DNA of 64,000 bases from Aureimonas phyllosphaerae (GTDB lineage Bacteria > Pseudomonadota > Alphaproteobacteria > Rhizobiales > Rhizobiaceae), in NCBI RefSeq assembly GCF_900113065.1, contig NZ_FOOA01000001.1:62001-126000 (forward strand), written 5' to 3'. Under the pieces are notes generated by a model. It was not told where the DNA came from and did no database searches. It worked only from the letters and a program-made list of their open reading frames with translations. Shown here in pieces: positions 23,490 to 45,815 of this stretch; the stretch's first letter is position 1, and every line of letters begins with the position of its first letter. The position numbers were made by a program, and so were the translations under genes.

Positions 23490-24002
23490 ATGGTGGCGCG
23501 CGAGACAGAGGCGGAAGCCGACGATGGGACCGATCGCGCGGGCGCCGCGATGCCGACCCGCCAGCGTAAGATCATCCATGTCGACATGGATGCGTTCTAC
23601 GCCTCGGTCGAGCAGCGGGACGATCCGTCGCTGCGCGGCAAGCCGCTGGCCGTCGGAGGTTCGGCACAGCGCGGCGTCGTGGCGGCGGCAAGCTACGAGG
23701 CCCGTGCCTTCGGCGTACGCTCGGCCATGCCGTCGGTCACCGCCAAGCGCCGCTGCCCCGACCTTCTGTTCGTGAAGCCGCGCTTTGACGTCTACAAGGC
23801 CGTCTCGCTCCAGATTCGCGGGATCTTCGCCGAACATACCGACATCATCGAGCCGCTGTCGCTCGACGAGGCCTATCTTGACGTGACGGAGAACAAGCAG
23901 GGCATCACGTCCGCCACCGCGATCGCCGAGGCGATCCGCCGGCGCATCCGCGAGGTCACCGGCCTTACCGCCTCAGCCGGCGTCTCCTACAACAAGTTCT
24001 AA
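23490..24002 (+). pseudogene. dinB: dinB (DNA polymerase IV), 5' fragment interrupted by mobile element
   Basis: These are the first 170 residues of a Y-family polymerase: [19 protein letters not shown] with the catalytic Asp, [20 protein letters not shown], and the second acidic pair in [11 protein letters not shown]. The frame stops right after [11 protein letters not shown], where intact DinB proteins continue with a Leu-Ala-Lys run; the rest of the palm, thumb and little finger (about 190 residues) is missing. The remainder is not elsewhere in the window. The cut coincides with the left end of the recombinase operon. The fragment lacks DNA-binding parts and is probably inactive. Confidence 0.9.
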
Positions 24003-24070
24003 CGCACACCTTCAGGCAGTTTTGTCAACAATTAGGGGCAAGCTGCTGTAAAACATTGCAAAATGCGCGT

Positions 24071-24099
24071 TTGACAGGGTTTCTTCCCTAGGGTAACTG
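24071..24099 (+). promoter_or_regulatory. Sigma-70-like promoter of the recombinase operon, near-leaderless
   Basis: TTGACA (24071-24076) and TAACTG (24094-24099) are separated by 17 bases. The first ATG is at 24110, so transcription should start only a few bases before it. No Shine-Dalgarno sequence precedes that ATG, consistent with leaderless translation of the first recombinase. Confidence 0.6.
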
Positions 24100-24109
24100 C
24101 GTCCGCCCT

Positions 24110-25495
24110 ATGAAGCATCTGCTGAAACCCGAAGGCATTGCCGAACTAAAGGTCACACTGGTCGTCTTTCCGAATGGCGAGCGGTGCCCGATGCTCGTCA
24201 CGGGCGACGGCATCCCCCTGTTTGACCCGACGGTCTGGTCGCTCACGAAGTATCGCAGGAGGAGCGCTTCCACCGTGGAGCAAGCCCTCCGCGGGGCAAT
24301 GCTCATCCACCTGTTCTGCTGGCGACACGGCATCGACCTGGCCGAACGCATCAGGAGCGGCGCGTTCTTCGAGGTCGGAGAACTGGATGCCCTCGCATCG
24401 GACGCCTCGAAACCGTTCACCCGGCTACGGGGGGTATCGAAGGTGGTCCCCGTGGCTGCAACTGCGCAGAAGCGCCGTCGCTCCGTCGCAAGACTGCATC
24501 GAAGGCTTCCGTCGACCACTCGGGCGCAAGTGGTCATTCCCGCCACCGCAATGATCAGACTGCACTACGCCGCAAGCTACCTGAAGTGGCTCGGAGAACG
24601 ACAGAGACCCCGTCTCCCCACAGGGGCCGTAAGTGCCGACGAGGCGTCCGCGAGGATGCGGGAATACGGGGCGAGGCTTCTGGAAGTGGTCGAACAGATT
24701 GAGGAGCGGTTGCCGTCAGTTACCGACGCGGACCGCACGAGCCTAGAGCCCGAAGAGCGGATCCGCCTTCTCGCGGTCACCCACCCGGACAGCCTGGACA
24801 ATCCTTGGATCGATCCGTTCGTGCGTCTGCGGAACTGGGTGATCGTGCGCTGGCTCCTCGCCACCGGGATGCGACGGGGCGAGCTGCTCGGCCTCAGGAT
24901 CAAGGACTTCAACCGGGGTCAAGCCTTTTGCGAGATCAAACGCCGTCATGACGACAAGCGCGACCGTAGACGTAGGCAGCCGAACGCTAAGACATCGGAG
25001 CGCCTCGCCCCCTTGGACGAGGGCTTGACCGAGCTCGGGGAGGAGTACCTCGAAGCCCGCAACCGGATCGAGGCTGCGCGCAAGCACGGCTTCCTCTTCG
25101 TCGCGCAAGACGGCAAGGCCCTTTCGGAAAGCGCAATCACGGGATTGTTCGCGCTGCTTCGGGAAAAGCATCCGGATGTCGGCCCTGTGAGCGCTCACGT
25201 CCTCCGGCATCAGTGGAACGAGGACTTCTCCGCCTACGCCGACGCAATCAAGTTGAGCGCCGAAGAAGAAGTCCGTGAACGCCGCTTGCTGATGGGGTGG
25301 TCCCGAACGTCCAAGATGCCGGGCCACTACTTGAAGCGCCGGACGAAGGTCAAAGCCGACGAACACAGTAGGGACATGCAGCGCCGGTTGATGAAGCACG
25401 GGTCCGCGATCCGGCAACGCATGCAGGACATGGAACGGGCGACCAAGGCGTTGCAGGACGACAGGGCTTGGCTCGGGGAGGTGATCGGTGCGTAA
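24110..25495 (+). CDS. Tyrosine recombinase 1 of the element (TnpA-like)
   Basis: This 461-residue site-specific recombinase has the complete catalytic set: R255 in TGMRRGELLGL, a lysine-rich beta-hairpin region (277-299), H363 and R366 in HVLRHQW, W397 in LMGWSRTS and the nucleophile Y407 in MPGHYLKRR. The N-terminal 240 residues include a SAM-like DNA-binding segment around 145-200. A basic C-terminal helix follows the active site. It is the first gene of the operon, with no ribosome-binding site. It overlaps the next gene by eight bases (GTGCGTAA). Confidence 0.9.
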   Translation: MKHLLKPEGIAELKVTLVVFPNGERCPMLVTGDGIPLFDPTVWSLTKYRRRSASTVEQALRGAMLIHLFCWRHGIDLAERIRSGAFFEVGELDALASDASKPFTRLRGVSKVVPVAATAQKRRRSVARLHRRLPSTTRAQVVIPATAMIRLHYAASYLKWLGERQRPRLPTGAVSADEASARMREYGARLLEVVEQIEERLPSVTDADRTSLEPEERIRLLAVTHPDSLDNPWIDPFVRLRNWVIVRWLLATGMRRGELLGLRIKDFNRGQAFCEIKRRHDDKRDRRRRQPNAKTSERLAPLDEGLTELGEEYLEARNRIEAARKHGFLFVAQDGKALSESAITGLFALLREKHPDVGPVSAHVLRHQWNEDFSAYADAIKLSAEEEVRERRLLMGWSRTSKMPGHYLKRRTKVKADEHSRDMQRRLMKHGSAIRQRMQDMERATKALQDDRAWLGEVIGA

Positions 25496-27044
25496 AACAC
25501 CCTTCGGCAAGATGCCAGACGTCGAGTCACCTTACGAGCTTCCCGACCAAGCCGAGACCCGCGATGGCTATGTCTACCGTCCCGGCGACGATCATTGGCC
25601 GATCGTTACCGACATTGGTCGGCTGAACTTCCACTTCGGCGACCTCGGCGTCGCCCACGCGCTGAAGACCGGATTCAAAGGGTTCGTCACAGCACGACTT
25701 CGCAGCGAGAACCCGAGGTCGGTGTATTCGAATTACCAGTTGGTCCGAGGACTGCTCCTTCACATCGCGACCTACGACACGGACGCAGTTGCAATCTCAT
25801 CCGCCCACCTGATGAATTACTCCGCTTCGTTCGAAGAGGACCAACGCTACCGTGCGACCGAGGCCAACGACATTGTACGAGTGTGGGCGCGCCTCGGCAT
25901 CCCGGCTGTTTCAAGGGAAGCCTTCGTCACCGCCACCGACATGCCGAAAAGTTCAAGGAAGCGAGCGCTTGCGGTCCGGATGCGGTGCCCGATCCAAGGT
26001 GCGTACACGAACCTTGAGTATGACGGGCTTTATAAGGCTCTCCACGCGGCTTTCGCCGCGGGCGAAATCGCTATCGACAACTACGGCCTCTGCCTTCTCA
26101 GCGGAGCGATCGGGCCCAGGCCTGTTCAGATTGCCGGCCTGACGGTCGGCGATCTGAAGGTCACGATGGGGCCTGCGGGGAAAACGTACGTTCTGGCGAT
26201 CCCCCGTGCGAAGCAAAGGGGCGCACGATACCGGACACAGTTCACCGAACGCCCCCTCATCGAAGAGATCGGCATGATCATTGAGGCGCAATCCCTGTTG
26301 GTTCGCGAGAAGGCAAGGCTCTGCGGAATGGCTGACCCCAACGAGGCACCCTTGTTCCCGGCCGTGCACGTGAGCAGTACATTCTTCGACGGTGGGACAA
26401 CCCCTGCCCGCCCGACGCCAGCTTCCATCGCGATGAGGATCATCAACGTGATGGAGGGACTGGGCGTGAATTCCGAACGAACCGGAGAGGCGATCAACGT
26501 GAACGCCACGCGGGCGCGACGCACGGTCGGCACCCGTGCGGCACAAGAGGGCAAATCCCTGGACGAGATCATGGTGATCCTCGACCACACGTCACGTACC
26601 GCTGCACAGAGTTACATCGAGGTTCGTTCCGATCTTCTCCAGCGCCTCGACAAGAAGCTTGCCATCTTGCTGGCACCCATGGCGCAGCGCTTTGCTGGAA
26701 CCCTTGCGGCGCGTGGAAACGACGTCGGGCAAGGCATCGAGCGGCATATCCTCGGATCCGTCGACGAGGGCGAAGGGCCCGTGGCCCTGGGTGGCTGCGG
26801 GAAGCACGGCTTCTGCGGCCTTGGGAAGCCAATTGCCTGCTACACGTGCCGACTGTTCCACCCATGGCTGGACGGACCTCACGAAGAGATCCTCGACTGG
26901 CTTCTCGGGAGGCGCAGGCAGATGGCCGAGGACGGATCCATGGCCGTCGCCGTCACACTTGACGACACGATCGTCGCGTGTGCCGAAGTGGTCCGCCAAT
27001 GCCGAGCAAGGGCGGCATCGCTGGAAGGCGACCGAAATGGCTGA
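25488..27044 (+). CDS. Tyrosine recombinase 2 of the element, non-canonical box II
   Basis: This 518-residue recombinase starts with GTG after GGGGAGG. The catalytic domain shows R211 in GPRPVQIAGL, a second arginine R344, H367 in ILDHTSR and nucleophile Y376 in QSYIEV. The usual histidine of the HxxR motif is replaced by threonine (T341, in NATRARRTVGTR). The C-terminus has a Cys-rich patch (C437, C443, C451, C454) likely to bind zinc. The altered box II suggests a division of labour with the other two recombinases. It overlaps the next start by eight bases (ATGGCTGA). Confidence 0.87.
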   Translation: MRKTPFGKMPDVESPYELPDQAETRDGYVYRPGDDHWPIVTDIGRLNFHFGDLGVAHALKTGFKGFVTARLRSENPRSVYSNYQLVRGLLLHIATYDTDAVAISSAHLMNYSASFEEDQRYRATEANDIVRVWARLGIPAVSREAFVTATDMPKSSRKRALAVRMRCPIQGAYTNLEYDGLYKALHAAFAAGEIAIDNYGLCLLSGAIGPRPVQIAGLTVGDLKVTMGPAGKTYVLAIPRAKQRGARYRTQFTERPLIEEIGMIIEAQSLLVREKARLCGMADPNEAPLFPAVHVSSTFFDGGTTPARPTPASIAMRIINVMEGLGVNSERTGEAINVNATRARRTVGTRAAQEGKSLDEIMVILDHTSRTAAQSYIEVRSDLLQRLDKKLAILLAPMAQRFAGTLAARGNDVGQGIERHILGSVDEGEGPVALGGCGKHGFCGLGKPIACYTCRLFHPWLDGPHEEILDWLLGRRRQMAEDGSMAVAVTLDDTIVACAEVVRQCRARAASLEGDRNG

Positions 27045-29076
27045 AGTCATCCCGTTTGTCCCGAAGGCCCATCTCGCCGCCTTGGCGAACATGGAGGAGT
27101 TCGTACGCTTTTGCCGCGACGAACTCGCCGTGTTCGGCTCCGATCTCGAATTCGAATCTTTTTCTTGGAACGTTACGCGCTTTTACCATCAGCGAGGCAA
27201 GTGCCATGAGCACTTCCTGAACTTCACCGAGAACACTCCCCGGCTGGGCCGGCTGGGTCCCATAATGCCGGAGCCGTTCGCGAGCCAGGTGAAGGCCTAC
27301 ATCCGCTACCATGCAGGTCGAAATCCGTCGAAAGCTCCTCCTCTGAATGAGATACGTGCGTTCAGGGCGTTGCTCGCGGCGTTCCTCGACAAAGGGGTGA
27401 CGCCGGACCTGGGCTCGGTAGATGCCCATTTGCTCGACCATGCTGTCCAACTTGCTGCCGCAAGGAGACCAGGCAACTATTCAGCGAGCATCGGCGTTCT
27501 TTTGACGCCAGTTTCGGAGTTCCTGAGAGAAAACAATCTCGCCGCGAACGCCCCGATCGACTGGAAGCACGGCCAAGCGTGGGAATTGTACAACAACCGC
27601 TCGAGAGACGAGCGCCGTGAGGCACTGATGCCTTCAGATGAGGCGCTGCAAGCGCTTCCACGAAGTTTCCGTAAGGCAACCGAACCTCGTGATGTGATCG
27701 CCACGTCGGTGATGGCGCTGCTGGCGTGCGCCCCAAGCCGCATAAACGAGATCTTCGCACTCCACCACGACTGCGAGATCAAGCCCCTGACGGATGGCGA
27801 CGAGGGTTACATGCTGCAATGGGCGGGCTCGAAGGGCCACCACGACTTCGCAAAGGGCATCCCCGCCGTGATGGCCGATGTCGCCAAGGAAGCGCTCGCG
27901 CGGCTGAACAAGCATACGGCCGAAGCACGACGCATCGCGGCTTGGTATGAGCATCATCCCGATCGTCTCTATCTGCCGGACGACTGCGTCCACCTGCGGG
28001 GCAAGGACCTCTCCGGGGCCGACATCGCACGTATCATCGGCTTCAACGAAGCTGGCAACGGACGAGACTGGGCAACCGACCGGAAGCTCGAGCCGATCAA
28101 GGGGATGCGGTCCTCAGCGGGACAAAGGATCTATGCGTTCCGCTTCTCGGACGTCGAAAGCGCCATCTTGTCCGAGTTGCCGCATGGCTTCCCGATCTTC
28201 GACAAGCAAACGGGTCTCCGCTACAGCGAAGCGCTGATGGTGGTGCGCCGTCAGGAATTTGCCGACCGCGGACGCGGACGATGGCGCTGCATGATTGCCC
28301 CCGTTTCCTATGGCAACATCATGAATAGTTTTCACAAGCCCGACGGCGTCTTCGCGCGCCTTGGACTGTCAACGCCCGAAAATCCGATCGTCCTGAAGAC
28401 ACACCAACTGAGACATTGGCTCAACACGGTGGCACAGCGGGGCGGCCTGACTGAGGCGGAAATCGCGGCCTGGAGCGGCCGCTTGGACCGCCGGCAGAAC
28501 GAACCCTACGATCACCGTACGCCCGAGGAGATGCTTCAAGCGAAGCGCCGTAGGGACAAGGAGGTCGCAACGATCGCGGGTACCGCGGTGAGGGTGAACC
28601 CACCGGTGGCGAGGAATGAGGCTGCGGCTCGCGCCGGGCACGGGCATGCGACAGACATCGGCTTCTGCGGGCACGACTTCGCCTCGTCCCCTTGCATGAT
28701 GTTCATGCAGTGCCTGCACTGCACCAAGCACACATGCGTCAAGGGTCACGATCCGCGACACCTGGAAAGGGTGGAGTTCGCCCTCGAGCGCGCTCGGCGA
28801 AGCCTCGCTGAAGCGGAGGCGGCGCTGGCAAAAGAGTACGAGGGTGCGGACGACTGGGTCCGCGCTCATCGCGAGACGATCGAGCGCCTCGAGCAGTTGT
28901 ACGGCATCCTGTCCGACCCGACCGTGCCGGACGGTTCGGTGATCCGGCTCGCCAAGTCCGGCCGTTACTCTTTGGTCGAACAGGCCATGCACGACAACGA
29001 GGTGGTCACGGGCGTCCTGCTGCGGGGGAACGTCGGCGGCATGCAGGGGATCGGTGCAGGGACGGCCGGTGCCTAG
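27037..29076 (+). CDS. Tyrosine recombinase 3 of the element (TnpB-like, long)
   Basis: This 679-residue protein has a long N-terminal region and catalytic residues R235 (ACAPSRINEIF), H456 and R459 (THQLRHWLN), W479 (AAWSGR) and Y491 (NEPYDHR). A Cys/His cluster follows (C544, C553, C559, C562, C567, H571), probably a zinc finger, then a coiled coil (573-625). Size and layout resemble TnpB of Tn554-like elements. I chose ATG 27037, which has GGAAGG upstream and overlaps the previous stop; the frame opens earlier (26659) only inside its neighbour. It overlaps the next gene by eight bases (GTGCCTAG). Confidence 0.88.
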   Translation: MAEVIPFVPKAHLAALANMEEFVRFCRDELAVFGSDLEFESFSWNVTRFYHQRGKCHEHFLNFTENTPRLGRLGPIMPEPFASQVKAYIRYHAGRNPSKAPPLNEIRAFRALLAAFLDKGVTPDLGSVDAHLLDHAVQLAAARRPGNYSASIGVLLTPVSEFLRENNLAANAPIDWKHGQAWELYNNRSRDERREALMPSDEALQALPRSFRKATEPRDVIATSVMALLACAPSRINEIFALHHDCEIKPLTDGDEGYMLQWAGSKGHHDFAKGIPAVMADVAKEALARLNKHTAEARRIAAWYEHHPDRLYLPDDCVHLRGKDLSGADIARIIGFNEAGNGRDWATDRKLEPIKGMRSSAGQRIYAFRFSDVESAILSELPHGFPIFDKQTGLRYSEALMVVRRQEFADRGRGRWRCMIAPVSYGNIMNSFHKPDGVFARLGLSTPENPIVLKTHQLRHWLNTVAQRGGLTEAEIAAWSGRLDRRQNEPYDHRTPEEMLQAKRRRDKEVATIAGTAVRVNPPVARNEAAARAGHGHATDIGFCGHDFASSPCMMFMQCLHCTKHTCVKGHDPRHLERVEFALERARRSLAEAEAALAKEYEGADDWVRAHRETIERLEQLYGILSDPTVPDGSVIRLAKSGRYSLVEQAMHDNEVVTGVLLRGNVGGMQGIGAGTAGA

Positions 29077-29527
29077 GGGCGTACGCAGGAAGCCCCCTGC
29101 CCGCCGTCCCCGCGCGCCTCCCATGACCCCGGAGCGCATCACCCGCATCGTTGCCCTGATCGACGGATGGACGGGGCGCCTCACGTGGGAGGCGCTCTGC
29201 GAAGCGGTCGCGCGCGAGACCGGCGCAAGCTACAGGCGGGCGTCGCTCAACAACTACCTTCAGATCAAGTCTGCCTACAAGGCGTACGTCAAGAAGCCCA
29301 ACCTAGCACCAAGCGGGGATGCGACCCCGGCACCAAAACCAAAGGGACCGAGCAGGACGCAGAAGAAGATCAGCAGGCTGGAAAGGAAGGTCGCCGAGCT
29401 GACGGCCGTGAACGATGCCCTGTTGGAGAAGTTCGCCCGTTGGGCGGTGAACGCCGGCTCGCGCGGCCTCGACGAAGCCTTCCTGGATCAGCCACTGGTA
29501 CAGATCAAGCGCTCCGAGAACCGATGA
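29069..29527 (+). CDS. Small element protein with winged-helix-like and coiled-coil segments
   Basis: This 152-residue basic protein is not assigned to a named family. Residues 17-65 look like a compact helical DNA-binding fold (LTWEALCEAVARETGASYRR). After a Pro/Lys linker, a coiled coil (KKISRLERKVAELTAVNDAL) occupies about 100-125. GTG at 29069 overlaps the previous stop by eight bases as in the two upstream junctions; GTG 29054 is an alternative. Its stop overlaps the next ATG. By position it is probably an accessory factor for the recombinases. Confidence 0.7.
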   Translation: MPRGVRRKPPARRPRAPPMTPERITRIVALIDGWTGRLTWEALCEAVARETGASYRRASLNNYLQIKSAYKAYVKKPNLAPSGDATPAPKPKGPSRTQKKISRLERKVAELTAVNDALLEKFARWAVNAGSRGLDEAFLDQPLVQIKRSENR

Positions 29528-29925
29528 TGGCGCAGAAGTCGTTCCTCGAAGTGAGCGAAGAGAACCATGCCAAGCTGGTCGAGTTCGTGGAGCGGCTCCG
29601 CGCGGCCGGCCTGAAACTCCCCGGGCGTCTCGGCAAGGTCAACAAGACTGCCGTCGCTAGGGCTTGCGGCTTCGCGCGGGAGGTTTTCCAGCAGAACTCC
29701 CGCTTCGCCCGCACCCTGGAAGAGGCCGTCGCGGACCTCGGCATCGACGTGCCGCAGGCGGAGGAGCCGGAGCCGCGGGACAGCGGGGACAAGTCCAGGA
29801 TCATGCGTCTCGAGCAACAGCTCGCCGCCGCCCGCAGCGAGAACCATGAGTTGAGGCGGCGCTTGCGCCGCTACGAGGCCATCGTGGACCACGTGGCGTC
29901 GTCGGGGCGGAGGGTGATCCCGTGA
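29524..29925 (+). CDS. TnpC-like small HTH/coiled-coil protein of the element
   Basis: This 133-residue protein has a helix-turn-helix-like segment KVNKTAVARACGFAREVFQQ (about residues 38-57) and a C-terminal coiled coil (RIMRLEQQLAAARSENHELR). Size and layout resemble TnpC of Tn554, which affects efficiency and orientation of transposition. ATG overlaps the previous stop (ATGA), and its own stop overlaps the GTG of the helicase gene (GTGA). The function is inferred from size, layout and position. Confidence 0.68.
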   Translation: MMAQKSFLEVSEENHAKLVEFVERLRAAGLKLPGRLGKVNKTAVARACGFAREVFQQNSRFARTLEEAVADLGIDVPQAEEPEPRDSGDKSRIMRLEQQLAAARSENHELRRRLRRYEAIVDHVASSGRRVIP

Positions 29926-31814
29926 GTTCCTCCCCTGGGGCGGCATGGGGAACGGAGCTGCCGCGCGGCCAGCATCTTATCCGGTTCCTGGCGGGACGAC
30001 CGGAGTTCGTCGGCGTGGGCCCCGCGACGGCCCGGCGGATGTGGGATGCCTTCGGGGAAAGCCTCCACGACATCCTCGCCGAAGGCAGTGTCGAGCGCCT
30101 GACGAAGGTCCTTCCGCGGACACAGGCCGAGATCGTCTGCGATGCATGGCGGAACCAGAGGGCCGTCACCGAGGCGGTCGCGTTCTTCGACCGGCACGGC
30201 ATCGGCATCCGTTACGCCCGAAAGGCCGTGGAGCTGTGGGGCGACGAAGCCATCGCCAAGCTCCAAGAGAACCCCTACCGCCTGTTGACGCTCTGCGCCT
30301 GGAGAGAAGTGGATCAGGCCGCGATGCGACTCGGGGTCCGACTGGACGACCGACGACGGCAGGTCGGGGCGGTGGAGGCGGCGCTCTACGAGCGGCTCGA
30401 CGGGAAACACACGGTCACGTCCCTGGAGAAGCTCGTCCGCCATGCATGCACGCTCCTCGGCGCGACGCCTGCGGATGCGGAACGCGCCGTGACCATCGCG
30501 GTGGACGACGGCGCGGCCATCCCTTGTCCGGGTGGCTACCAGCCTGCGGGGGCCGCCTACGCCGAGCGGTTCATCGAGACCCGCATCCGTGCGGCGCTGG
30601 CCGATGACGGACAAGCGAGGGACCTGCTGGCGAGCCGACCCACGCCGGTTGCGATGTCGACCTTCCTCGAACGTTACAACAGTCTCGCCTCCCAGCGACT
30701 GACGAGCGAGCAGGCAGACGCGGTGACGATGGCGTTGAACCATCGGTTCGCGATCCTCGTCGGGGGCGCGGGGGTCGGCAAAACCACGACGCTCCGCGCC
30801 ATAAACGAGGCCGCCGAGCAATTCGGATTCCACGTACACCAGCTCGCGCTCGCCGGGAGGGCCGCGCAGCGAGTGGCGGACGCGACCGGCCGGGCGGCCC
30901 GTACGATCGCCTCTTGGCTCTGGGATGCCTCGAAAGGCCGCGCGGGAACGGGAGCGCACACGCTCGTCGTCGTCGACGAAGCGAGCATGCTGGACCTACC
31001 CACGCTCTACCGCATCCTGTTCCATCTGCACGAGGATGCGAGGCTGCTGCTGGTCGGGGACGTCGCCCAGCTCGCCCCGATCGGATACGGCCTCACCTTG
31101 CACCGTCTGGTTTCCAGCCCCCGGATCCCGCGTGTCGAGTTGACCCGCATCATGCGGGCCGACGAGGCGACGGGAATCCCGGCGGTGTCCAGAGCCGTAC
31201 GCGAAGGCAGGTTGCCCGAGCTACCGACTTACAGGGACGGTCGCACAGGGTGCAGCGTCGTCGGATGCGGGCCGGAAAGCGTCATCGACGAAATCGAGCG
31301 GATCCGCGACGACCTCCGCGACGAGGAAGTGCAGGTCGTGGGAGCGACCTATGCCGGTCCCGCCGGGATCGACGCGATCAACACGTACTTCCACCGCTAC
31401 AACGCGCATGGCCGCTTGCGGCTCGCGCGCTTCGCCGAGGGGGACCCGGTCATCTGGACGAAGAACGACCACGAGCGCGGCCTTTGGAACGGAACCATGG
31501 GGCATGTCCTCGTCGTGAAGGAAGACCGCCTTACTGTCCGGCTCGACGGTCGGACCTTCGACCTCTTGGCTGCCGACCTGTCCGGCCGGATCGACCTCGC
31601 CTACGCTATCAGCACGCACAAGGCGCAAGGGTCGCAGTGGGGCACGATCATCGTGCCGTTGAGTTCCAGCCGTCTTTTCGATCGGGCTCTCCTCTACACG
31701 GCGCTGACCCGAGCCGAGCGACGCGTGGTCTTGGTCGGCGACCTCGGGCACCTGCACCGTGTGGTGACACAGCAGCCGAGTTCGCTTGCGCGCGACGTCG
31801 CGCTTGCCGTCTGA
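29922..31814 (+). CDS. RecD2-like superfamily 1B DNA helicase
   Basis: This 630-residue helicase begins with a helix-hairpin-helix region (VGVGPATARRMWDAFG, residues 31-46) and a RecD2-type N-terminal domain. The Walker A is GGAGVGKTTT (281-290) and Walker B VVVDEAS (349-355). Later motifs are QLAPIGYGL and the UvrD-type C-terminal DLAYAISTHKAQGSQW. RecD2 unwinds DNA 5' to 3'. A helicase co-encoded with a recombinase trio is unusual; it may process the excised circle or recombination intermediates. GTG start after GGAGGG. Confidence 0.87.
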   Translation: MSSSPGAAWGTELPRGQHLIRFLAGRPEFVGVGPATARRMWDAFGESLHDILAEGSVERLTKVLPRTQAEIVCDAWRNQRAVTEAVAFFDRHGIGIRYARKAVELWGDEAIAKLQENPYRLLTLCAWREVDQAAMRLGVRLDDRRRQVGAVEAALYERLDGKHTVTSLEKLVRHACTLLGATPADAERAVTIAVDDGAAIPCPGGYQPAGAAYAERFIETRIRAALADDGQARDLLASRPTPVAMSTFLERYNSLASQRLTSEQADAVTMALNHRFAILVGGAGVGKTTTLRAINEAAEQFGFHVHQLALAGRAAQRVADATGRAARTIASWLWDASKGRAGTGAHTLVVVDEASMLDLPTLYRILFHLHEDARLLLVGDVAQLAPIGYGLTLHRLVSSPRIPRVELTRIMRADEATGIPAVSRAVREGRLPELPTYRDGRTGCSVVGCGPESVIDEIERIRDDLRDEEVQVVGATYAGPAGIDAINTYFHRYNAHGRLRLARFAEGDPVIWTKNDHERGLWNGTMGHVLVVKEDRLTVRLDGRTFDLLAADLSGRIDLAYAISTHKAQGSQWGTIIVPLSSSRLFDRALLYTALTRAERRVVLVGDLGHLHRVVTQQPSSLARDVALAV

Positions 31815-31910
31815 TGGATCTCGCCTCGTCAAATGGGCGGATGATCGCGCGGAGCCAGGACCCTGGATCCACGGTCCTGCCAGCATTCGCGCTGTTCCAG
31901 AATACCCTCA

Positions 31911-31976
31911 GGGCGGACGCGGCCCGGTCCGGCGCGCTCCCCATAGCGCCGTAGCCGGACCGGGCCGCGTCCGCCC
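31911..31976. repeat. Perfect 23-bp inverted repeat (strong hairpin) after the integration module
   Basis: The left arm is 31911-31933 and the right arm 31954-31976, exact reverse complements over 23 bases, very G+C-rich, with a 20-base loop. It lies about 100 bases after the helicase stop, in a 354-base gene-free stretch (31815-32168) with no other recognised feature. No T-run follows, so it is not a classical intrinsic terminator. It may end the recombinase transcript or be a structural site of the element. Confidence 0.85.
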
Positions 31977-32168
31977 GTCCCCGTGCCCAGCACCTCGCAG
32001 CGGCGGCGCCGGAGTCGATCGGCGGCCCGGTAGTGAACGACCGGATGCCGTCCAGCCTTCAAGACACGCGTCGGGACAAGCTTTAGCAGGAGCCCGCCGA
32101 CGCGTCCCGGCCGCTTCATGCACAAGAGCGTCCAGCACTGCGTCGGCAAGCATTTCGCGGGAGGAGCC

Positions 32169-32924
32169 TTACTTTGCCGCGGCGTCGAGGATCGCCGCGA
32201 ACTGCTCGGGCGGAAGCGCCCCGCGGTACTTCTTGCCGTCGATGAAAAAGGTCGGCGTTGAATCGACACCGAACTCGCTCGCGCCCCTGTCCTTCGTCGC
32301 CACGACCTTCGCCTGGAGGTCGGCGTCGGACAGGCATGCCCTAAAGCTTTCCTCCGTGAAGCCCGCGATGCGCGCGATCGACAGAAGCCTGTTCGCCGCG
32401 TCGTCCGCGTGCGCCCAGCTCTCGGATTGCGCGAACAGGGCGTCGACCATCGCCGTGCGCCCGTTCTCGCCAGGCGTGCAGCGCGCCAGCATGGAGGCGG
32501 CGACCGCGCGCGGGTCGAACGGGAACTCGCGGACGATCAGCTTGGCCTTGCCCGTGTCAAGGTAGTCCCGCTTCAGCGTCGGGTAGGTGTTGGCGTGGAA
32601 GGCCGCGCAGTGGTCGCAGGTCATCGAGGCATACTCGACGATGGTGATCGGCGCGTCCGTGCGTCCGATCACCACGTCGGGCAGCACTTGGCCGGACATC
32701 AGCGCGGCGACGTCGACCTCGCCGTCGGCTTCGGGAGCGGGTGTGGACGGGGATGGCGCGGACGGCGCTGCCACCGCAGTCGGCGCCGCCGGGGCCTCGC
32801 CCACCGCCGCAGCGGGTGACGTCGTCTCGTCCGAGCATCCCGCGAGCGCGAGGAGGACGAGGCAGAGGGCGGGCGCAAGGGATCGGTGCGCGCGCCGACG
32901 GGCGCCGCGGATGGATCGGGTCAT
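32169..32924 (-). CDS. DsbA-family thioredoxin-fold lipoprotein
   Basis: This 251-residue protein has a lipoprotein signal (lipobox LALAGC, Cys about residue 29) and a long Pro/Ala linker. The DsbA/DsbG-like domain contains active-site CDHC in YASMTCDHCAAFH and the cis-proline region DSTPTFFIDGKKYRG. It should act as a periplasmic thiol oxidant or isomerase. It is read in the same direction as mntH and the small gene at 33011, which suggests an envelope role linked to metal stress. Confidence 0.88.
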   Translation of the reverse strand: MTRSIRGARRRAHRSLAPALCLVLLALAGCSDETTSPAAAVGEAPAAPTAVAAPSAPSPSTPAPEADGEVDVAALMSGQVLPDVVIGRTDAPITIVEYASMTCDHCAAFHANTYPTLKRDYLDTGKAKLIVREFPFDPRAVAASMLARCTPGENGRTAMVDALFAQSESWAHADDAANRLLSIARIAGFTEESFRACLSDADLQAKVVATKDRGASEFGVDSTPTFFIDGKKYRGALPPEQFAAILDAAAK

Positions 32925-33010
32925 GGGAATGGTCCTCTATGCGCGCGGGCGGCCCTCGGGCGGCGGCGCGGGAAACGGAAACGGGGACTGGTTGGCCGAA
33001 AGGGCCGGGT

Positions 33011-33334
33011 TCAGGTCCGCGTCCGGTCCGGGGGGCGCTCGTCGGGCATGCGGTCGCGCCCGAGCAGGAGATCGGCCGGAACGGTGCCGATGCGCGCGGC
33101 CGAGAACCAGGGCGAGCCAATCTCCGGATGGACGTTCCCTACCAGCCCGAAGCCGCAGTGCACGTCGTCCGGCATGTCGTTGCCGTCCGTGCCGTCGGCG
33201 GGCGCGGCATCGCCGGTGTCCGTCCCGACCCCGACCACCACGGTCTCGGCGCAGCCGGGCACCGTCGCCGCCCCGTGGGCGAGGGAGGCGAACAGGGAGG
33301 CCAGCAGGACGAGCGCGAGCGCGGCGAACTTCAT
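33011..33334 (-). CDS. Small secreted protein of unknown function
   Basis: This 107-residue protein has a signal peptide (MKFAALALVLLASLFASLAHG). The mature part has two cysteines, is rich in Gly, Asp and Thr, and has a very charged Arg/Pro/Asp tail. I do not recognise a family. It lies between mntH and the DsbA-like gene on the same strand, so it is probably co-transcribed, and its two cysteines could be a DsbA-like substrate pair. Confidence 0.6.
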   Translation of the reverse strand: MKFAALALVLLASLFASLAHGAATVPGCAETVVVGVGTDTGDAAPADGTDGNDMPDDVHCGFGLVGNVHPEIGSPWFSAARIGTVPADLLLGRDRMPDERPPDRTRT

Positions 33335-33431
33335 GCGCCCATGATCCCCGCTCGGACCCCCGCGTCAACCGCGGCGATGCCGCAGTCCGGCAAGCACGAG
33401 GGGTTCCGGCAGCCCGGGACGACGCGACGGG

Positions 33432-34787
33432 TCAATGCGACCGGGCGCCCAGGACGAAGTCGAAGAGCAACTTCACGTTCAGGAGCGCGATGGCCACGGC
33501 GATCGCCAACGCCACGCCGGCCAGCCAGCGCGGAGCCACGAGCTCGCCCATCTTGCGACGATCCATCGTGAACATGACCAGCGGGAACACCGCGAACGAG
33601 AGCTGGAGGCTGAGGACGACCTGCGTGAGGATCAGGAGGCGGGCGGTGCCGCTCTCGCCGAACCAGATCGTCACCGAGGCCGCTGGGACGATGGCGATGA
33701 TCCGGGTGATCAGGCGCCGGAGCCAGGGCGCGAGCCGGATGTCGAGGAAGCCCTCCATCACGATCTGCCCGGCCAGCGTCGCCGTGACGGTGGAGTTGAT
33801 GCCGCAGCACAGGAGCGCGACGCCGAACAGGGTCGGCGCGACGGCGGCCCCGAGGATCGGCGCGAGCAGGCTGTGCGCCTCGCCGAGCTCGGCGATCCCG
33901 GTCCGTCCCGTTGTGTGGAAGGCCCCGGCCGCCAGGATCAGTATCGACGCGTTGACGAGGAGCGCGAAGCAGAGCGCGACGGTGGAGTCGATCGTGGCGA
34001 AGCGCAGCGCCTGGTGCTTCTCCGGCAGGGTCGTCCCGTAGGCGCGCGTCTGCACGATGCCCGAATGGAGATAGAGGTTGTGGGGCATCACGGTGGCCCC
34101 GAGGATTCCGAGCGCGAGGTACAGCATCTCGGGGTTCGACACGATCTCGGTGGTCGGGGCGAACCCGCGGATCACGTCGCCCCAGTTCGGGTCGACCATG
34201 GCGATCTGGACGGCGAAGCACACCGCGATGACGCCGAGCAGCGTCACGATCAGCGCCTCGACCCATCGGAAGCCGAGCCGCTGGAGCCATAGGATCAGGA
34301 ACACGTCGACGGCGGTGATCAGGACGCCGATCTCGAGCGGGATCCCGAACAGGAGGTTGAGGCCGATGGCGGTGCCGATGACCTCCGCGATGTCGGTGGC
34401 GACGATGGCGATCTCGGCCAGGAACCAGAGCGGCAGCGCGACGTAGCCCGGGTATGCGTCGCGGCAGGCCTGTGCGAGGTCACGACCCGACGCGATCGCC
34501 AGGCGCGCGCAGAGCGACTGCAACACGATCGCCATGACGTTCGACAGGAGCGCGACGAAGAGCAGGGTGTAGCCGAAGGCCGAGCCCCCGGCGATCGACG
34601 TCGCCCAGTTGCCGGGATCCATGTAGCCGACGGCAACGAGGTAGCCCGGACCGAGGAAGGCCGCCGCCTTGCGCCATGGCGGCGCGTTGCGGTCGACGCG
34701 GACGGTGCGGTGCACGTCGAGGAGCGATCCGTCCCCGCGGTCCCGCTTCCACCCCGCCTCGTCCGTGCATTCGTTCGAACCAGACAT
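33432..34787 (-). CDS. mntH: Manganese transporter, NRAMP family (MntH)
   Basis: This proton-coupled Mn2+/divalent-metal importer has about 451 residues and 11 helices. The metal-binding motif DPGNW in helix 1 and [10 protein letters not shown] in helix 6 are both intact. I chose ATG 34787 (MSGSNE) with GCGGAA upstream; a GTG at 34802 is possible. It is divergent from a DtxR-family mntR gene across a gap that contains a GTTTG-N8-CAAAC repeat. Confidence 0.93.
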
Positions 34788-34836
34788 CGTTCCGCGCCCC
34801 ACTCCGAGATCGCGTAGAGTTGTTCCTCAGCACATG

Positions 34837-34854
34837 GTTTGTCCAGTAGCAAAC
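34837..34854. promoter_or_regulatory. MntR operator candidate (GTTTG-N8-CAAAC)
   Basis: This inverted repeat lies in the A+T-richer gap between mntH and mntR, about 50 bases from each start codon. Position and symmetry suit an MntR dimer that represses mntH when Mn is plentiful. Confidence 0.5.
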
Positions 34855-34904
34855 TTTGTGCCCGGAGCCGATTTCCGCTAGATGAGGGAGACGGAGGACG
34901 GCGG

Positions 34905-35333
34905 ATGACGGGCGGGATCGACGGAACGGATGCGGCAACGACGGCGGCGCGGTTCGCGCGCGTGCGCAAGGCCAACCAGTCGGAGCTGTCGGAGGACTAC
35001 GTCGAGATGATCGACGACCTGATCGCGGAGCGCGGCGAGGCAAGGGCGGCCGACCTCGCCGAGCGCTTCGGCGTCTCCCCCGGCACTGTCGCCCGTACCG
35101 TGCAGCGGCTAGCCCGGGACGGTCTGGTCAGCTCCGAGCCGTACCGGGCAATCTTCCTGACGGCAGAGGGCAAGGAACTCGCCGAACGGGTCAGGGCGCG
35201 GCACCGCCTGGTCGTCGACTTCCTGAAGGCGATCGGCGTGGCGCCCGCGTCGGCGGAGATGGATGCCGAGGGGATCGAGCACCATGTCGGGAAGGACACG
35301 CTCGACGCCTTCCGCAGGTTCCTGACGCGCTGA
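34905..35333 (+). CDS. mntR: Manganese-responsive regulator MntR (DtxR family)
   Basis: This 142-residue regulator has a winged helix (AADLAERFGVSPGTVARTVQRL, residues 46-67) and a dimerisation helix with the metal-ligand segment DAEGIEHHVG (about 118-127). It resembles the long-N-terminus MntR of proteobacteria and has no SH3 domain. ACGGAGG precedes the ATG. It is divergent from mntH, its expected target. Confidence 0.9.
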   Translation: MTGGIDGTDAATTAARFARVRKANQSELSEDYVEMIDDLIAERGEARAADLAERFGVSPGTVARTVQRLARDGLVSSEPYRAIFLTAEGKELAERVRARHRLVVDFLKAIGVAPASAEMDAEGIEHHVGKDTLDAFRRFLTR

Positions 35334-35397
35334 GGGTTACGCACGGCGGGACGTCCGATCCGGAGCGACGGCGCGGGGCCGCCCGGGCCTTGCCGCC

Positions 35398-36414
35398 TCA
35401 GCGCTCCGCGTCCGCCGGATCCTCGGCCAGCGCTTCGGGCCGGCTGACGGGCACGGCGTCCATCGACGTCTCGACGGAGAGGCCCTTCGTCCCGAGCCGC
35501 TTGAGCATGTCGCGATACCGCGGGTGCATCCCGCCGTCGACGTAGGACATCGGCATGCCCGCCCGGCCCTCGGACAACAGGGACTGGAGCAACCTGTCGT
35601 CCCTCTCGCGCTTGGCGGCCACCTCGGGCGCGACGCGCGTCTCGAGCGGCGGGCAAGAGGCCGCCGGATCGATCGGCTGGCGGTCCTTGCGCCGCGCGTC
35701 GAACACGTAACGCCCGCCGCAGGCAGCGACCTCGGGCTCCCTCCGCGTCACCTCGAAGATGTCGTACCCGAGCTTCAGGTTGCGCCAGAACGCAATGTTC
35801 GGGTCGCTCCGGTGGCGCGCCATCTGCTCGGCGGTCATCCGGAATGGGAAGGACTGAACCTGGAAGTCGCCCTGGCCGAGCGCGAAAGCCCTCTCCGCGT
35901 CGGCGTAGACCTCGCCGACGCCCTCGTCGGTCATCGCGAAGCACCCGGACGACGAGCAGGCCCCGTGCACCATCAGCGAGTCGCCCGTGTAGCCGAGCGA
36001 CTTCTCGAGCGGGTTGGGGTAACCGAGGTTGAAGGAGCGGTGGTACTTCGAGTTCGGGTTCATCAGCGCCCGGGTGACCCGGTAGAAGCCCTCGGGCGCC
36101 TGGCGGTCGCCGTTCGTCTTCTTGGGACCGAGCTTTCCGGACCATCGGCAGAGCGGATGGGTCTTGTGCGGGGCGTAGCGACCGTCCGCGCCGAGCTTCC
36201 AGACCTCGAGTTCGCTCTCCTCCTTGAAGATGCGCACCAGGATCGAGCCTGGCGGACGGGCCTTCGCCTCGGCGTAGGCCGTGGGCACGAGGTCCTTGTA
36301 GGTCTCATCCGACACCGACATGCAGCCGCCCATGGACGCGAGACCGAGAAGGGCGACGGCCAGCGCTGCTCGTCGCGTGGCGGTGCGGGCGCGGCGTCGT
36401 GCGGGAAGGTGCAT
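35398..36414 (-). CDS. L,D-transpeptidase (YafK/ErfK-like) lipoprotein
   Basis: This 338-residue protein has an N-terminal basic stretch and a lipobox-like LASMGGC, then a YkuD-type L,D-transpeptidase domain. The catalytic site lies in VHGACSSSGCFAM, which carries the HGxxxSxGC motif. YafK-like members act on peptidoglycan or its links to lipoprotein. The start at 36414 (MHLPARRR) has GGAACGAG upstream. It converges on mntR and lies downstream of the MerR-type gene on the same strand. Confidence 0.85.
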   Translation of the reverse strand: MHLPARRRARTATRRAALAVALLGLASMGGCMSVSDETYKDLVPTAYAEAKARPPGSILVRIFKEESELEVWKLGADGRYAPHKTHPLCRWSGKLGPKKTNGDRQAPEGFYRVTRALMNPNSKYHRSFNLGYPNPLEKSLGYTGDSLMVHGACSSSGCFAMTDEGVGEVYADAERAFALGQGDFQVQSFPFRMTAEQMARHRSDPNIAFWRNLKLGYDIFEVTRREPEVAACGGRYVFDARRKDRQPIDPAASCPPLETRVAPEVAAKRERDDRLLQSLLSEGRAGMPMSYVDGGMHPRYRDMLKRLGTKGLSVETSMDAVPVSRPEALAEDPADAER

Positions 36415-36557
36415 CTCGTTCCGAGGGTTGGTCGTGGCGGGTCTCCGTCCATCATCGACGGCCGGGCTGTCGCGGGGATGACCCGGGGCCGCAACCGTCG
36501 CGGCCGCCAAGAGACGCCTCGATCCGGCGGAAGTGAGGCGACCGCAGCCGTCGGTCC

Positions 36558-36980
36558 TCAATGCGTCTCGTGCAGGCACTCGCCGTGATCGCCGAGGACC
36601 TCGATCACCCGGCACTCCGCGACCGAATGGTTCGAGCAGTTCGTCATCCGCGCGATCTCCGCACGCAGCGCCGTCAGCCGGGCGATCTTGTGGTCGATGT
36701 CGGCGAGATGCGCGGCGGCGATCCGGTCGGCGCTCTCGCACGGACGGTCCGGCTCCCCGGCCAGCGCCAGGAGTTCGCGGATGGGCTCGATCTCGAAGCC
36801 GAGCTCGCGGGCGTGCCGGATGAAGCGCAGGCGGCTGAGGTCGCCCGCGTCGTAGAGGCGGCGGTTGCCCTCCGTCCGCGGCGGCGCGGCCAAAAGGCCG
36901 ATCTGCTCGTAGTACCGGATCGTCGGCACCTTGATGCCGCTCGCGCGCGACGCCTCGCCGATCGGAACGCCTTGCGTCAT
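36558..36980 (-). CDS. MerR-family Zn/Cd/Pb-responsive regulator (CadR/ZntR type)
   Basis: This 140-residue regulator has a MerR HTH (IGEASRASGIKVPTIRYYEQIGLL) and a dimerisation helix. Metal-ligand cysteines are at C81, C115 and C123, plus an extra C135 and His residues in the tail. This spacing is that of CadR/PbrR/ZntR rather than CueR. It is divergent from a Zn/Cd P-type ATPase with a shared 17-base dyad in between, the usual MerR arrangement. AGAGGAA precedes the ATG at 36980. Confidence 0.88.
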   Translation of the reverse strand: MTQGVPIGEASRASGIKVPTIRYYEQIGLLAAPPRTEGNRRLYDAGDLSRLRFIRHARELGFEIEPIRELLALAGEPDRPCESADRIAAAHLADIDHKIARLTALRAEIARMTNCSNHSVAECRVIEVLGDHGECLHETH

Positions 36981-36988
36981 TTTTCCTC

Positions 36989-37019
36989 TTGCTCCTCTAG
37001 CCGCTAGAGGAAGTACGCC
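36989..37019 (+). promoter_or_regulatory. MerR-type promoter/operator of the P-type ATPase
   Basis: CCTCTAG-CCG-CTAGAGG (36994-37010) is a perfect dyad that begins at the end of a TTGCTC -35 box (36989-36994). About 19 bases separate that box from a weak -10 (near 37014). This over-long spacer with a central dyad is how MerR-family activators work. It controls the ATPase gene and probably the regulator gene too. Confidence 0.75.
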
Positions 37020-37048
37020 TCTCCCGACACGCACGCAAGGAGAGCGCC

Positions 37049-39232: not shown

Positions 39233-39831
39233 GCGCCGCCGCCGACGACCTCCTTCGCATCGGGCCGGCGATCGTCCTCGCCGTCACCGTGGCGTGGCTT
39301 GCGCTCGCCACCCGTCGGACGTCCCGGGAGATCGGCGGGCGTGCCTATGGCTTCGGGAGGAGTCCCCGCCAGACGCTGGCGCGCGTCCTGTTCGGCGCGA
39401 CCGTCGTGGGCGGTCTCGCGGCCCTCGGGCTCCATGCGGCGGGGAGCGCGTCGGCCGCGATCGCACCGCTCGCGGGCGAGGCCTACGCCGTCCGTCTGTC
39501 CGGTCTGGCGCTGGCCGTCGCGGGGCAGGTCCTGACGGTCGTGGCCCGGAGCGGGATGGGCCGACGCTGGCGGGTCGGCATCCCGGACGAGGCGCCTGAC
39601 GCCCTGGTCACGACGGGTTTATTTGGCCTCAGCCGCAACCCCGTGTTCCTCGGGATGCTCGCGATGGCGGCAGGGCTCGCGGTGGCCGTGCCGTCCCCGG
39701 CGATGATCGGCTGCGCGCTGGCCTTCTGGGTCGCCTGCGAGGTCCAAGTCCGGGACGAGGAGCGCTTCCTCGAACACTCGTTCGGCCCCGCATACACCGC
39801 ATACCGAAGCGCCGTGCGGCGCTGGATCTGA
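39229..39831 (+). CDS. Isoprenylcysteine carboxyl methyltransferase-like membrane protein
   Basis: This 200-residue integral membrane protein has four or five helices. Its C-terminal half carries the ICMT/phospholipid methyltransferase pattern: SRNPVFLGM, then EERFLEHSFGPAYTAYRSAVRRW. The substrate is unknown. GTG at 39229 overlaps the ATPase stop (GTGA), so it is co-translated with the metal pump. Such genes are often found next to metal-efflux genes. Confidence 0.82.
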   Translation: MSAAADDLLRIGPAIVLAVTVAWLALATRRTSREIGGRAYGFGRSPRQTLARVLFGATVVGGLAALGLHAAGSASAAIAPLAGEAYAVRLSGLALAVAGQVLTVVARSGMGRRWRVGIPDEAPDALVTTGLFGLSRNPVFLGMLAMAAGLAVAVPSPAMIGCALAFWVACEVQVRDEERFLEHSFGPAYTAYRSAVRRWI

Positions 39832-39851
39832 CATGGAACAGGAGTGACCCC

Positions 39852-40295
39852 ATGGGACGCAGACCGACGACGATCATCGCCGGGGCGCTCGCGCTCCTCA
39901 CCGTACCCGCGTTCGCAGCCGAGACCGTCGACGTGTTCTCGACGTCGGGCTGCGGCTGCTGCATCGGCTGGATGAAGCACCTCGAGGAGGCAGGGTTCGA
40001 GGTCTCGAACGAGAACCTCGCCATGGCGGACCTCTACGCCAAGAAGACGGGCGCCGGACTGAAGCCGGGCCAGACCTCCTGCCACACGGGCTTCGTCGGC
40101 GGCTACGTCGTCGAGGGCCATGTCCCGGCAGCCGAGGTGAAGCGCCTGCTCGCCGAGAAGCCGGACGCGATCGGGCTCGCCGTTCCCGACATGCCTGCGG
40201 GAAGCCCGGGCATGGGGACCAGCGACGAACCCTACGAGGTGCTCCTAGTCGCCCGCGACGGCACGTCGACGGTGTTCGCACGGTACCCGAAGTGA
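39852..40295 (+). CDS. DUF411 periplasmic metal-binding protein
   Basis: This 147-residue protein has a signal peptide (cut after VPAFAA) and the DUF411 core: VDVFSTSGCGCCIGWMKHLE with a CxCC cluster, then SCHTGFVGGYVVEGHVP. DUF411 proteins accompany copper-resistance genes and probably bind Cu+. It is the first gene of a DUF411-PCuAC-SCO1 unit; AACAGGAG lies before the start. Confidence 0.9.
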   Translation: MGRRPTTIIAGALALLTVPAFAAETVDVFSTSGCGCCIGWMKHLEEAGFEVSNENLAMADLYAKKTGAGLKPGQTSCHTGFVGGYVVEGHVPAAEVKRLLAEKPDAIGLAVPDMPAGSPGMGTSDEPYEVLLVARDGTSTVFARYPK

Positions 40296-41478: not shown

Positions 41479-41550
41479 TCGACGAAACGGGCCGAGGGGA
41501 CTGCGCCTCCGCGTCCAACCCGGTCCCGACGCCATCGCAGCCGGACCGAG

Positions 41551-41572
41551 CCGTTCGAATGCGAACGGTTTT
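41551..41572 (+). terminator. Intrinsic terminator after the copper-chaperone unit
   Basis: CCGTTCG-AATG-CGAACGG is a perfect 7-bp stem with a 4-base loop followed by TTTT, about 70 bases after the SCO1 stop. Confidence 0.8.
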
Positions 41573-41640
41573 CTCCATCGGAAACCAATCCTCCGCCCGC
41601 ATCCTGCCGCCGCTTGAAGGCAAGGGACCGGAGCGATCGC

Positions 41641-42051: not shown

Positions 42052-42069
42052 ACCGCCCGACGGATCCGG

Positions 42070-42108
42070 GCGAGCCTTCCTGGCAGGCGCACGGTCGGGA
42101 AGGCTCGC
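42070..42108. terminator. Bidirectional terminator-like hairpin
   Basis: GCGAGCCTTCC (42070-42080) pairs perfectly with GGAAGGCTCGC (42098-42108) around a 17-base loop. It sits exactly between two convergent genes. No T-run follows on either side, so termination would rely on stem strength or Rho. Confidence 0.55.
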
Positions 42109-42117
42109 GCCGACGGG

Positions 42118-42788: not shown

Positions 42789-42820
42789 CCGGCAAGTCGC
42801 AAATTTCCGGGACGAAACCG

Positions 42821-45806: not shown

Positions 45807-45815
45807 ACCCGGCCC

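What the first reader, a model, noticed from the sequence alone, without database searches (positions are those of the whole stretch)
24003..31814. Six-gene recombinase-trio operon with a built-in RecD2-like helicase
Three different tyrosine recombinases (461, 518, 679 aa), two small HTH/coiled-coil proteins and a RecD2-type helicase overlap end to start without gaps. Recombinase trios and Tn554-like TnpABC sets are known, but I know of no described family in which a RecD2-like helicase is the sixth, translationally coupled member. It may be a new class of integration machine in which the helicase processes excised or branched DNA, or helps the element copy itself.
Basis: partly seen in the sequence, partly recalled or inferred. 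Interest (0 to 1): 0.78.

Follow-up and report, generated by a model that had tools for sequence, protein, structure and literature searches.

The report
Jumping island with optional helicase module
This is the moving machinery of a 55-kilobase bacterial DNA island that cuts into a DNA-repair gene and carries a second copy of that gene; three recombinases appear to move it, and it also carries a helicase that travels with a small partner gene between otherwise different islands, which hints at a shared helper step in how such islands move.

Summary
The six-gene set is real (24110-31814): three tyrosine recombinases, two small proteins and a RecD2-like helicase. It is the left end of a ~55.2 kb island inserted inside dinB (genus Aureimonas, inferred from named near-identical loci). 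The rest of dinB lies 55 kb away, next to an island-borne second dinB. Of 21 genomes of the genus, 4 carry the island at the same codon, 11 have an empty site, 6 gave no dinB hit. In three of the four the island ends are 99.9-100% identical while dinB is 82-86% identical, so it moved recently. By gene content, core, AT-rich right end and relatives docked at ssb it is a GInt, a known kind. The helicase is not a chance neighbour, but it is optional: of 80 related loci, 21 have second-small-gene plus helicase, one is cut by a contig end, 38 have neither, 20 cannot be judged. The pair changed state at least eight times on the recombinase tree, was exchanged between recombinase lineages, and also follows a gamma-mobile-trio operon. 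I read it as a portable module that processes the recombination intermediate; that step is inferred.

The parts
23490..24002 (+). 5' part of dinB (170 codons), cut after ...SAGVSYNKF; the TAA stop comes from the island
   Evidence: PF00817 3.2e-48, DNA polymerase IV 2.1e-78; 3' part found 55 kb away
23994..23999 (+). left 6-bp core AAGTTC at the junction; the island starts at 24000 and runs past the window end to C43:141243
   Evidence: occupied and empty sites compared; length 55,244 bp
24023..24029 (+). TGTCAAC repeat, 23 bp inside the left end; its reverse complement ends 23 bp before the right border
   Evidence: related loci often have TGTAAA at a similar place
24110..25495 (+). A: tyrosine recombinase, 461 aa (GinA-like)
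   Evidence: Phage_integrase 1e-13; R255, H363, R366, Y407 conserved
25488..27044 (+). B: recombinase, 518 aa (GinB-like)
   Evidence: integrase_1 2.5e-99, under the curated cut-off
27037..29076 (+). C: large recombinase, 679 aa (GinC-like)
   Evidence: predicted fold matches XerH, IntI and Cre; catalytic residues
29054..29527 (+). D1: small protein, 134-157 aa (GinD-like)
   Evidence: profile hits directly after C in related loci
29524..29925 (+). D2: second small protein, 133 aa, helical N-terminal part plus a long C-terminal helix
   Evidence: VPA1267_fam 4.5e-13 and DUF6262 1.1e-4, both under curated cut-offs; model pLDDT 80.7, pTM 0.49
29922..31814 (+). E: RecD2-like SF1B helicase, 630 aa, overlapping D2 by GTGA
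31815..64000 (.). first part of the cargo (Nramp transporter, two heavy-metal P-type ATPases, RND efflux pump and others); the cargo continues beyond the window

Best explanation
The operon is the recombination machine of a GInt-type genomic island (about 55.2 kb) docked in dinB. A, B, C and D1 are the ginABCD equivalents: they act on the two ends and exchange strands at a 6-bp core. D2 and E are an added, portable two-gene module. I think D2, a probable DNA-binding coiled-coil protein, brings the 5'-3' helicase E to the branched, nicked intermediate left by strand-biased exchange, and E opens it so that host replication can finish the circular copy or the new insertion. The insertion breaks dinB, and a second dinB just inside the right end of the island probably restores Pol IV. 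Shown by sequence: island borders, recent movement between species, GInt-type core, recurrent D2-E linkage, its gain or loss, exchange between lineages. Inferred: copying of the 6-bp core, helicase substrate, role of D2, function of the second dinB. Likelihoods: GInt-type identity 0.9; D2-E works in the movement process 0.7; this particular step 0.45.
For: Junctions, four occupied and 11 empty sites. Element ends 99.9-100% identical in three genomes whose dinB is 82-86% identical. D2 and E together in 21 of 80 loci plus one cut by a contig end, neither in 38, 20 not judgeable. 4-nt D2/E overlap in 22 of 30 loci with the pair. VPA1267 survey: hits in 9 of 398 genomes, E downstream in 9 of 9. 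Natural pair L105/L114 that differs after D1. Module exchange. SE model with a branched intermediate and nicked circles (PMC10214605 passages); RecD2 prefers forks and moves 5'-3' (PMC12143592 passages).
Against: Most judgeable trios (38 of 60) lack the pair, so it is not needed in general; in GInts the four gin genes alone sufficed in the published minimal element. No functional data on any D2-E. 8 of 30 loci with the pair do not show the 4-nt overlap. The Thioclava plasmid L015 has an E piece after an A fragment with no D2. Strand bias has not been shown for GInts. The VPA1267 survey missed the window's own D2 at its threshold.
Confidence: 0.5

Rival explanations
1. D2-E serves the excised circle rather than the exchange: it supports short-lived replication, or processing of single strands on entry into a new cell, so that the island persists until it integrates.
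For: The module lies last in the operon and next to the cargo, and most judgeable trios recombine without it (38 of 60). RecD2 translocates over long stretches of single strands.
Against: No replication initiator or relaxase was identified in the operon; tight coupling to the recombinase operon.
Confidence: 0.25
2. D2-E is defence or anti-defence cargo that happens to settle at the operon's end, where GInt cargo begins.
For: Cargo starts right after ginD in GInts, and defence genes sit there in some relatives (Avs4 in L012). The pair is gained or lost at exactly that boundary.
Against: The same pair recurs in the same place in trios of many genera, and 22 of 30 loci overlap by 4 nt; trio and E distances correlate (r 0.75 over 21 loci); the pair also follows GmtY, GmtZ, GmtX in L017. 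I did not scan D2 or E against the defence library.
Confidence: 0.15
3. The six-gene elements are a class of their own, distinct from GInts, with the helicase as a founding part that was lost in others.
For: Some loci with the pair have very divergent trios (L014, L016, L045, L049), and 13 of 29 loci with the pair show no ssb tail upstream against 10 of 40 without the pair.
Against: Trios with and without the pair are interleaved (at least 8 changes), both dock at ssb (16 of 29 and 30 of 40), and a 92% identical pair at one site differs by the module. Changes on an unrooted tree cannot tell gain from loss, so early presence is not excluded.
Confidence: 0.08
4. The helicase is a chance neighbour.
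For: Two of 95 loci scored show it apart from D2 by distance (L129, broken, and L136, 1.5 kb); L015 lacks D2.
Against: Linkage; none of 44 loci without the pair has an E-type hit better than a weak one in an unrelated ORF.
Confidence: 0.02

Closest known systems
GInt (genomic island with three integrases, ginABCD; PMC5385486)
   Same: Three recombinases plus a small protein in one operon at one end, cargo after it, AT-rich far end (40% GC over the last 100 bp), site-specific insertion; relatives docked at the end of ssb as in the paper.
   Different: Two further genes, D2 and the helicase; docking inside dinB, which it disrupts; a second dinB near the right end. The paper's main text has no occurrence of 'helicase', 'RecD' or 'dinB'.
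Gamma-mobile-trio islands (GmtY, GmtZ, GmtX)
   Same: In L017 GmtY, GmtZ and GmtX are followed by a VPA1267-family protein and an E-clade helicase, with the same 4-nt overlap.
   Different: The window's A, B, C and D1 hit no Gmt model, and hhalign finds no similarity of C to GmtZ (probability 0.7%). The primary paper on these islands is not in the library; I know it only by recall.
SE (strand-biased circularizing integrative elements; PMC10214605, PMC9345347)
   Same: Several recombinase-type proteins plus a small protein, 6-bp core, footprint at one end; model with a branched intermediate.
   Different: Described as a group distinct from GInts by sequence; no SE protein was compared here; 'helicase' does not occur in the main text of either paper.
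Tn554 and Tn552-II (TnpABC)
   Same: Site-specific multi-recombinase movement with the old att brought into the right end; Tn552-II carries a target-gene-like gene that its authors suggest may rescue the target (PMC12486829 passages).
   Different: Two recombinases plus TnpC (described in PMC3414803 and PMC10214605 passages), 7-bp att in Tn552-II, no helicase mentioned in the passages seen.
RecD2 (SF1B helicase)
   Same: Helix-hairpin-helix, AAA, SH3-like and UvrD_C_2 hits; best PDB sequence match 3e1s, 4.9e-52.
   Different: Under the NCBIfam RecD2 cut-off; island enzymes form a separate branch; the window copy is 630 aa, against 718-807 aa for the 22 chromosomal-type ORFs compared.

Membership tests
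GInt | operon of three recombinases and a small HLH-type protein (ginABCD) | tested here: met
   A, B, C by profile, residues and fold; D1 after C. Direct comparison with the published Pseudomonas GinABCD proteins was not made by name; the same-site Pseudomonas loci L105 and L114 are in the tree.
GInt | tripartite structure: operon, 2.5-70 kb cargo, short AT-rich 3' end | tested here: met
   55,244 bp between junctions, last 100 bp 40% GC against 70% in cargo
GInt | flanking direct imperfect repeats of about 10-17 nt, site-specific insertion | tested here: inconclusive
   Same codon in 4 genomes, exact repeat of 6 bp in the window genome; longer imperfect similarity is weak
GInt | excision as a circle; all four gin genes required | not testable with these tools
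   no reads, no experiments
Gamma-mobile-trio | GmtY, GmtZ and GmtX | tested here: not met
   No Gmt model among hits of A, B, C, D1 up to E 0.1; D2 hits VPA1267_fam under its cut-off
SE | IntA, Tfp, IntB, Srap proteins | not tested
   no SE protein fetched
SE | 6-bp footprint from the earlier site at the right end | tested here: inconclusive
   Right cores AAGTTC, AAATTT, AAATTC, AAGTTC against left cores AAGTT[C/T] in four genomes; fits, but few cases and mutation not excluded
RIT | three recombinase genes in an element of about 3.5 kb | tested here: not met
   55 kb element with cargo; the RIT size is from PMC3414803 passages
RecD2 | passes the NCBIfam helicase_RecD2 cut-off | tested here: not met
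   344.6 bits against 500; RecD2-like, on a separate branch

The most novel reading that the evidence does not exclude
D2-E is a portable helicase module that turns recombinase-only islands into replicative (copy-out) ones: one helicase subfamily with a TnpC-like partner serves GInt-type trios, gamma-mobile-trio islands and a third gene layout, and is swapped between them. Beside it, this island compensates for its own damage by carrying a diverged, target-resistant copy of the gene it breaks.
Probability: 0.3. Interest if true: 0.85.

Novelty: new variant of a known kind. Interest (0 to 1): 0.62.

Why it matters
GInts, SEs, gamma-mobile trios and Tn554 relatives move with several recombinases, and for SEs and Tn552-II the proposed route leaves a branched or single-stranded intermediate that something must finish. 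A helicase with a fixed small partner, found beside recombinase sets that do not resemble each other and lost or gained cleanly, is a concrete candidate for that missing factor, and it makes the copy-out model testable by comparing near-identical islands with and without it. The island also shows recent transfer of metal-transport genes and a Gabija defence system between species of one genus, and a case of an insertion that brings a second copy of the gene it disrupts.

Tried and rejected
Chance neighbourhood: rejected by linkage. E recruited anew from chromosomal RecD2 each time: not supported, since island helicases lie on one branch (quick tree, SH-aLRT only). Window trio as sister of the seven rhizobial trios whose E is nearest: rejected by the AU test (p 1.1e-6; quick tree, and the group was chosen after seeing the E tree); read as module exchange. 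GmtZ and the 825-aa protein of L013 as homologues of C: no support (hhalign probability 0.7% and 7.3%). Fold of D2: no PDB match at E <= 0.001. tRNA genes in the window: none. PDB sequence search with the C profile: nothing up to E 10.

Limits and results against. The 80-locus scan used one conserved stretch of B and kept the best 80 of 91 relatives, so it favours trios with that motif. L059, L060 and L077 are one element and probably the genomes seen again as G1007, G1019 and G1014. Of the 15 further loci scored, some were fetched because of a helicase hit, so 30 of 95 is not a rate; the 80 are the better base. Loci left out: L042 and L043/L141 (repeats of L124 and L136), L140 (contig ends inside the trio), L013, L015, L051. 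L013 has D2 and E without a recognised trio; L015 has a piece of E after a fragment of A and no D2; L051 has a chromosomal-type helicase. 'No helicase' means none found in a locus that has D1 and at least 3 kb after C; a re-scan of the 44 such loci gave three weak hits in unrelated ORFs. The tree leaves out L017, L059 and L077 and skipped L010, L050, L061 and L135. The Fisher value counts L074 as positive and treats related loci as independent. The tree cannot tell gain from loss. The VPA1267 survey did not recover the window's own D2, so its 9 of 398 is a lower bound. Cargo size against helicase presence was not tested. Print: the module was looked for (20 of 158 papers listed; 20 of 100; 5 of 5; 3 of 3; 20 of 36; 8 of 8; 8 of 222; 15 of 25; 2 of 2); no listing or passage that I saw describes it. 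The paper on gamma-mobile trios was not found in the library, so whether it mentions the helicase is unknown to me.
Full report
What is there. The six ORFs exist as described. D1/D2 share ATGA and D2/E share GTGA. A and B are recombinases by profile, B just under its cut-off. C has no profile hit, but its predicted structure matches XerH, IntI and Cre with probability 1.00 and low TM-scores, and it keeps R235, K266, H456xxR459, W479 and Y491. D2 is weakly of the VPA1267 / DUF6262 kind, under both cut-offs, and models as a helical N-terminal part with a long C-terminal helix. E is RecD2-like but under the curated RecD2 cut-off, with helicase motifs present.

Where it sits. The ORF just upstream is the first 170 residues of DinB, ending ...SAGVSYNKF. 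The contig goes on past the window, and the missing part, read as KFLAKLASDHRKPDG..., lies on the same strand 55 kb further on. Both junctions show AAGTTC. The element spans C43:86000-141243, 55,244 bp (arithmetic). Inside its right end is another dinB on the other strand, 399 aa, 77-78% identical over the aligned N-terminal 149-151 residues.

Movement. Among 21 genomes of the genus, 4 have dinB cut at this codon, 11 have it uncut there, and 6 gave no dinB hit at 1e-40. The second dinB was found in the 4 occupied genomes and in none of the 11 others with a dinB hit. By the same arithmetic the element is about 55.2 kb in three and 48.7 kb in the fourth. Named loci with the same element are A. 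jatrophae, Aureimonas sp. AU22 and A. ureilytica, which is how I name the genus. The element's first 2 kb are 100% and its last 1.5 kb 99.9-100% identical between the window genome and two others whose dinB is 82-86% identical to it; the fourth has about 90% and 87%. I take this as recent transfer between species. The right cores are AAGTTC, AAATTT, AAATTC, AAGTTC, all Lys-Phe codons, while the left cores and the 11 empty sites are AAGTT[C/T]. The footprint rule of SEs and Tn554 predicts such a difference if the element came from other dinB genes (PMC10214605 passages; PMC12486829 passages), but four genomes are few and mutation is not excluded. The island's own dinB has AAATTC or AAATTT there and differs around it, so it may be a poor target; that is inference. 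Tn552-II offers a precedent: it carries a target-gene-like gene that its authors suggest may rescue the target.

Family. A genome-collection scan with a conserved stretch of B gave 91 relatives, of which the best 80 were kept. With profiles of all six proteins I scored each locus. In 58 of 87 loci with at least 400 bp upstream of A, an ssb-like tail (..DDDIPF) ends right before the element: 16 of 29 with the helicase pair, 30 of 40 without, 12 of 18 unlabelled. GInts are described with three integrases and a small protein, cargo starting at the end of ginD, an AT-rich far end and frequent insertion at ssb (PMC5385486, parts 1 and 2 of 6 read). The window element fits, with dinB instead of ssb. 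Such trios are rare: C was found in 5 of 297 genomes of the order and B in 5 of 385 of the class, own genome included. Of the four other genomes, three have D2 and E and one does not.

The helicase. In the 80 loci, 21 have D2 and E, one (L074) has D2 and an E cut by the contig end, 38 have neither, and 20 cannot be judged. Over the 95 loci scored, plasmids and window included, 30 have the pair, and D2 and E overlap by exactly 4 nt in 22 of these 30. Outside that count, L015 has a piece of E without D2 beside a fragment of A. In a separate survey the VPA1267 profile hit 9 of 398 genomes of the phylum and none of 14 control genomes; it missed the window's own D2. E lies downstream in 9 of 9, in eight overlapping or within about 30 nt and in one after 1.5 kb. 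In the reverse direction, 24 of 289 genomes of the class had a helicase at 1e-40 or better. Besides the window's own and that of G324, which has D2, 22 were placed in a tree: 21 fall outside the island branch and have no D2 hit in their flanks of about 1.5 kb; the one inside it (L029) has a weak D2 hit overlapping by 4 nt. The pair also follows GmtY, GmtZ and GmtX in a Klebsiella plasmid. L170 and L171 have a similar layout by gene size, but their small protein does not hit the GmtX model, and L172 has a third layout whose upstream proteins I did not identify.

Optional and exchangeable. On a tree of B plus C (67 loci, 26 with and 41 without the pair) the label changes at least 9 times, 8 of them forced by well-supported branches, against 20.9 on average in shuffles. 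P. fluorescens ISL-62 and P. cerasi carry the same operon at the same site (92.4% DNA identity over 5.4 kb); similarity stops about ten bases before the end of D1, after which one has D2-E and the other does not. The window's D2 and E are 56-65% and 52-55% identical to six rhizobial elements, but its A, B, C and D1 only 28-35%. The AU test rejects grouping the trios (p 1.1e-6) while E groups them with full support. GC content steps from 62% (A-C) to 68% (D2-E). Over 21 loci E and trio distances correlate (r 0.75, 0 of 2000 permutations as high). So the module seems to have been swapped into this lineage after a long shared history elsewhere.

How it most likely works. Shown by comparison: site, core, movement, linkage. 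From published work on relatives: all four gin genes are needed for excision and integration, and a minimal element with them sufficed (PMC5385486); SE circles are mostly nicked and are thought to arise through a figure-eight with a single-strand bridge (PMC10214605 passages); RecD2 prefers forks and moves 5'-3' (PMC12143592 passages). Inferred: D2 brings E to the nicked, branched joint, and E opens it so that replication completes the copy. Since most judgeable trios manage without it, it would raise efficiency or suit some hosts, or serve the circle instead.

Verdict. I saw no description of the module in the searches named under Tried and rejected; the gamma-mobile-trio paper could not be read.

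Noticed in passing
L052:13826-15025 (-), just inside the island's right end, outside the window: A second dinB (399 aa), 77-78% identical to the disrupted one over the aligned N-terminal part, found in the 4 genomes with the island and in none of the 11 with an empty site.
   Followed up: partly
L052:6071-9388 (-), outside the window: A Gabija pair in the cargo: GajA 5.8e-216 and GajB 1.9e-168 in PADLOC.
   Followed up: partly
window 33432-51543: Metal-transport cargo: Nramp (33432-34802), two heavy-metal P-type ATPases (37049-39232, 42758-45358), a CusB-like adaptor and an RND pump (46668-51543).
   Followed up: partly
L015:9406-11344 (Thioclava plasmid): A fragment of A directly beside a C-terminal piece of E, with B, C, D1 and D2 missing; looks like a deletion remnant of a six-gene operon.
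   Followed up: no
L172:4420-11833: D2 and E behind three proteins of 607, 650 and 360 aa that hit none of the A, B, C profiles: a third layout.
   Followed up: no
L013:8491-12067 (Rhodovastum plasmid): D2 and E directly after a gene annotated as DNA-primase RepB domain protein, without a recognised trio.
   Followed up: partly
L012:11522-16285 (E. coli plasmid): An ssb-docked trio without the helicase has a gene annotated as Avs4 directly after D1.
   Followed up: no
L052:9694-11661 (-), outside the window: AAA ATPase with a weak M41 peptidase hit, weakly similar to IetA models.
   Followed up: no
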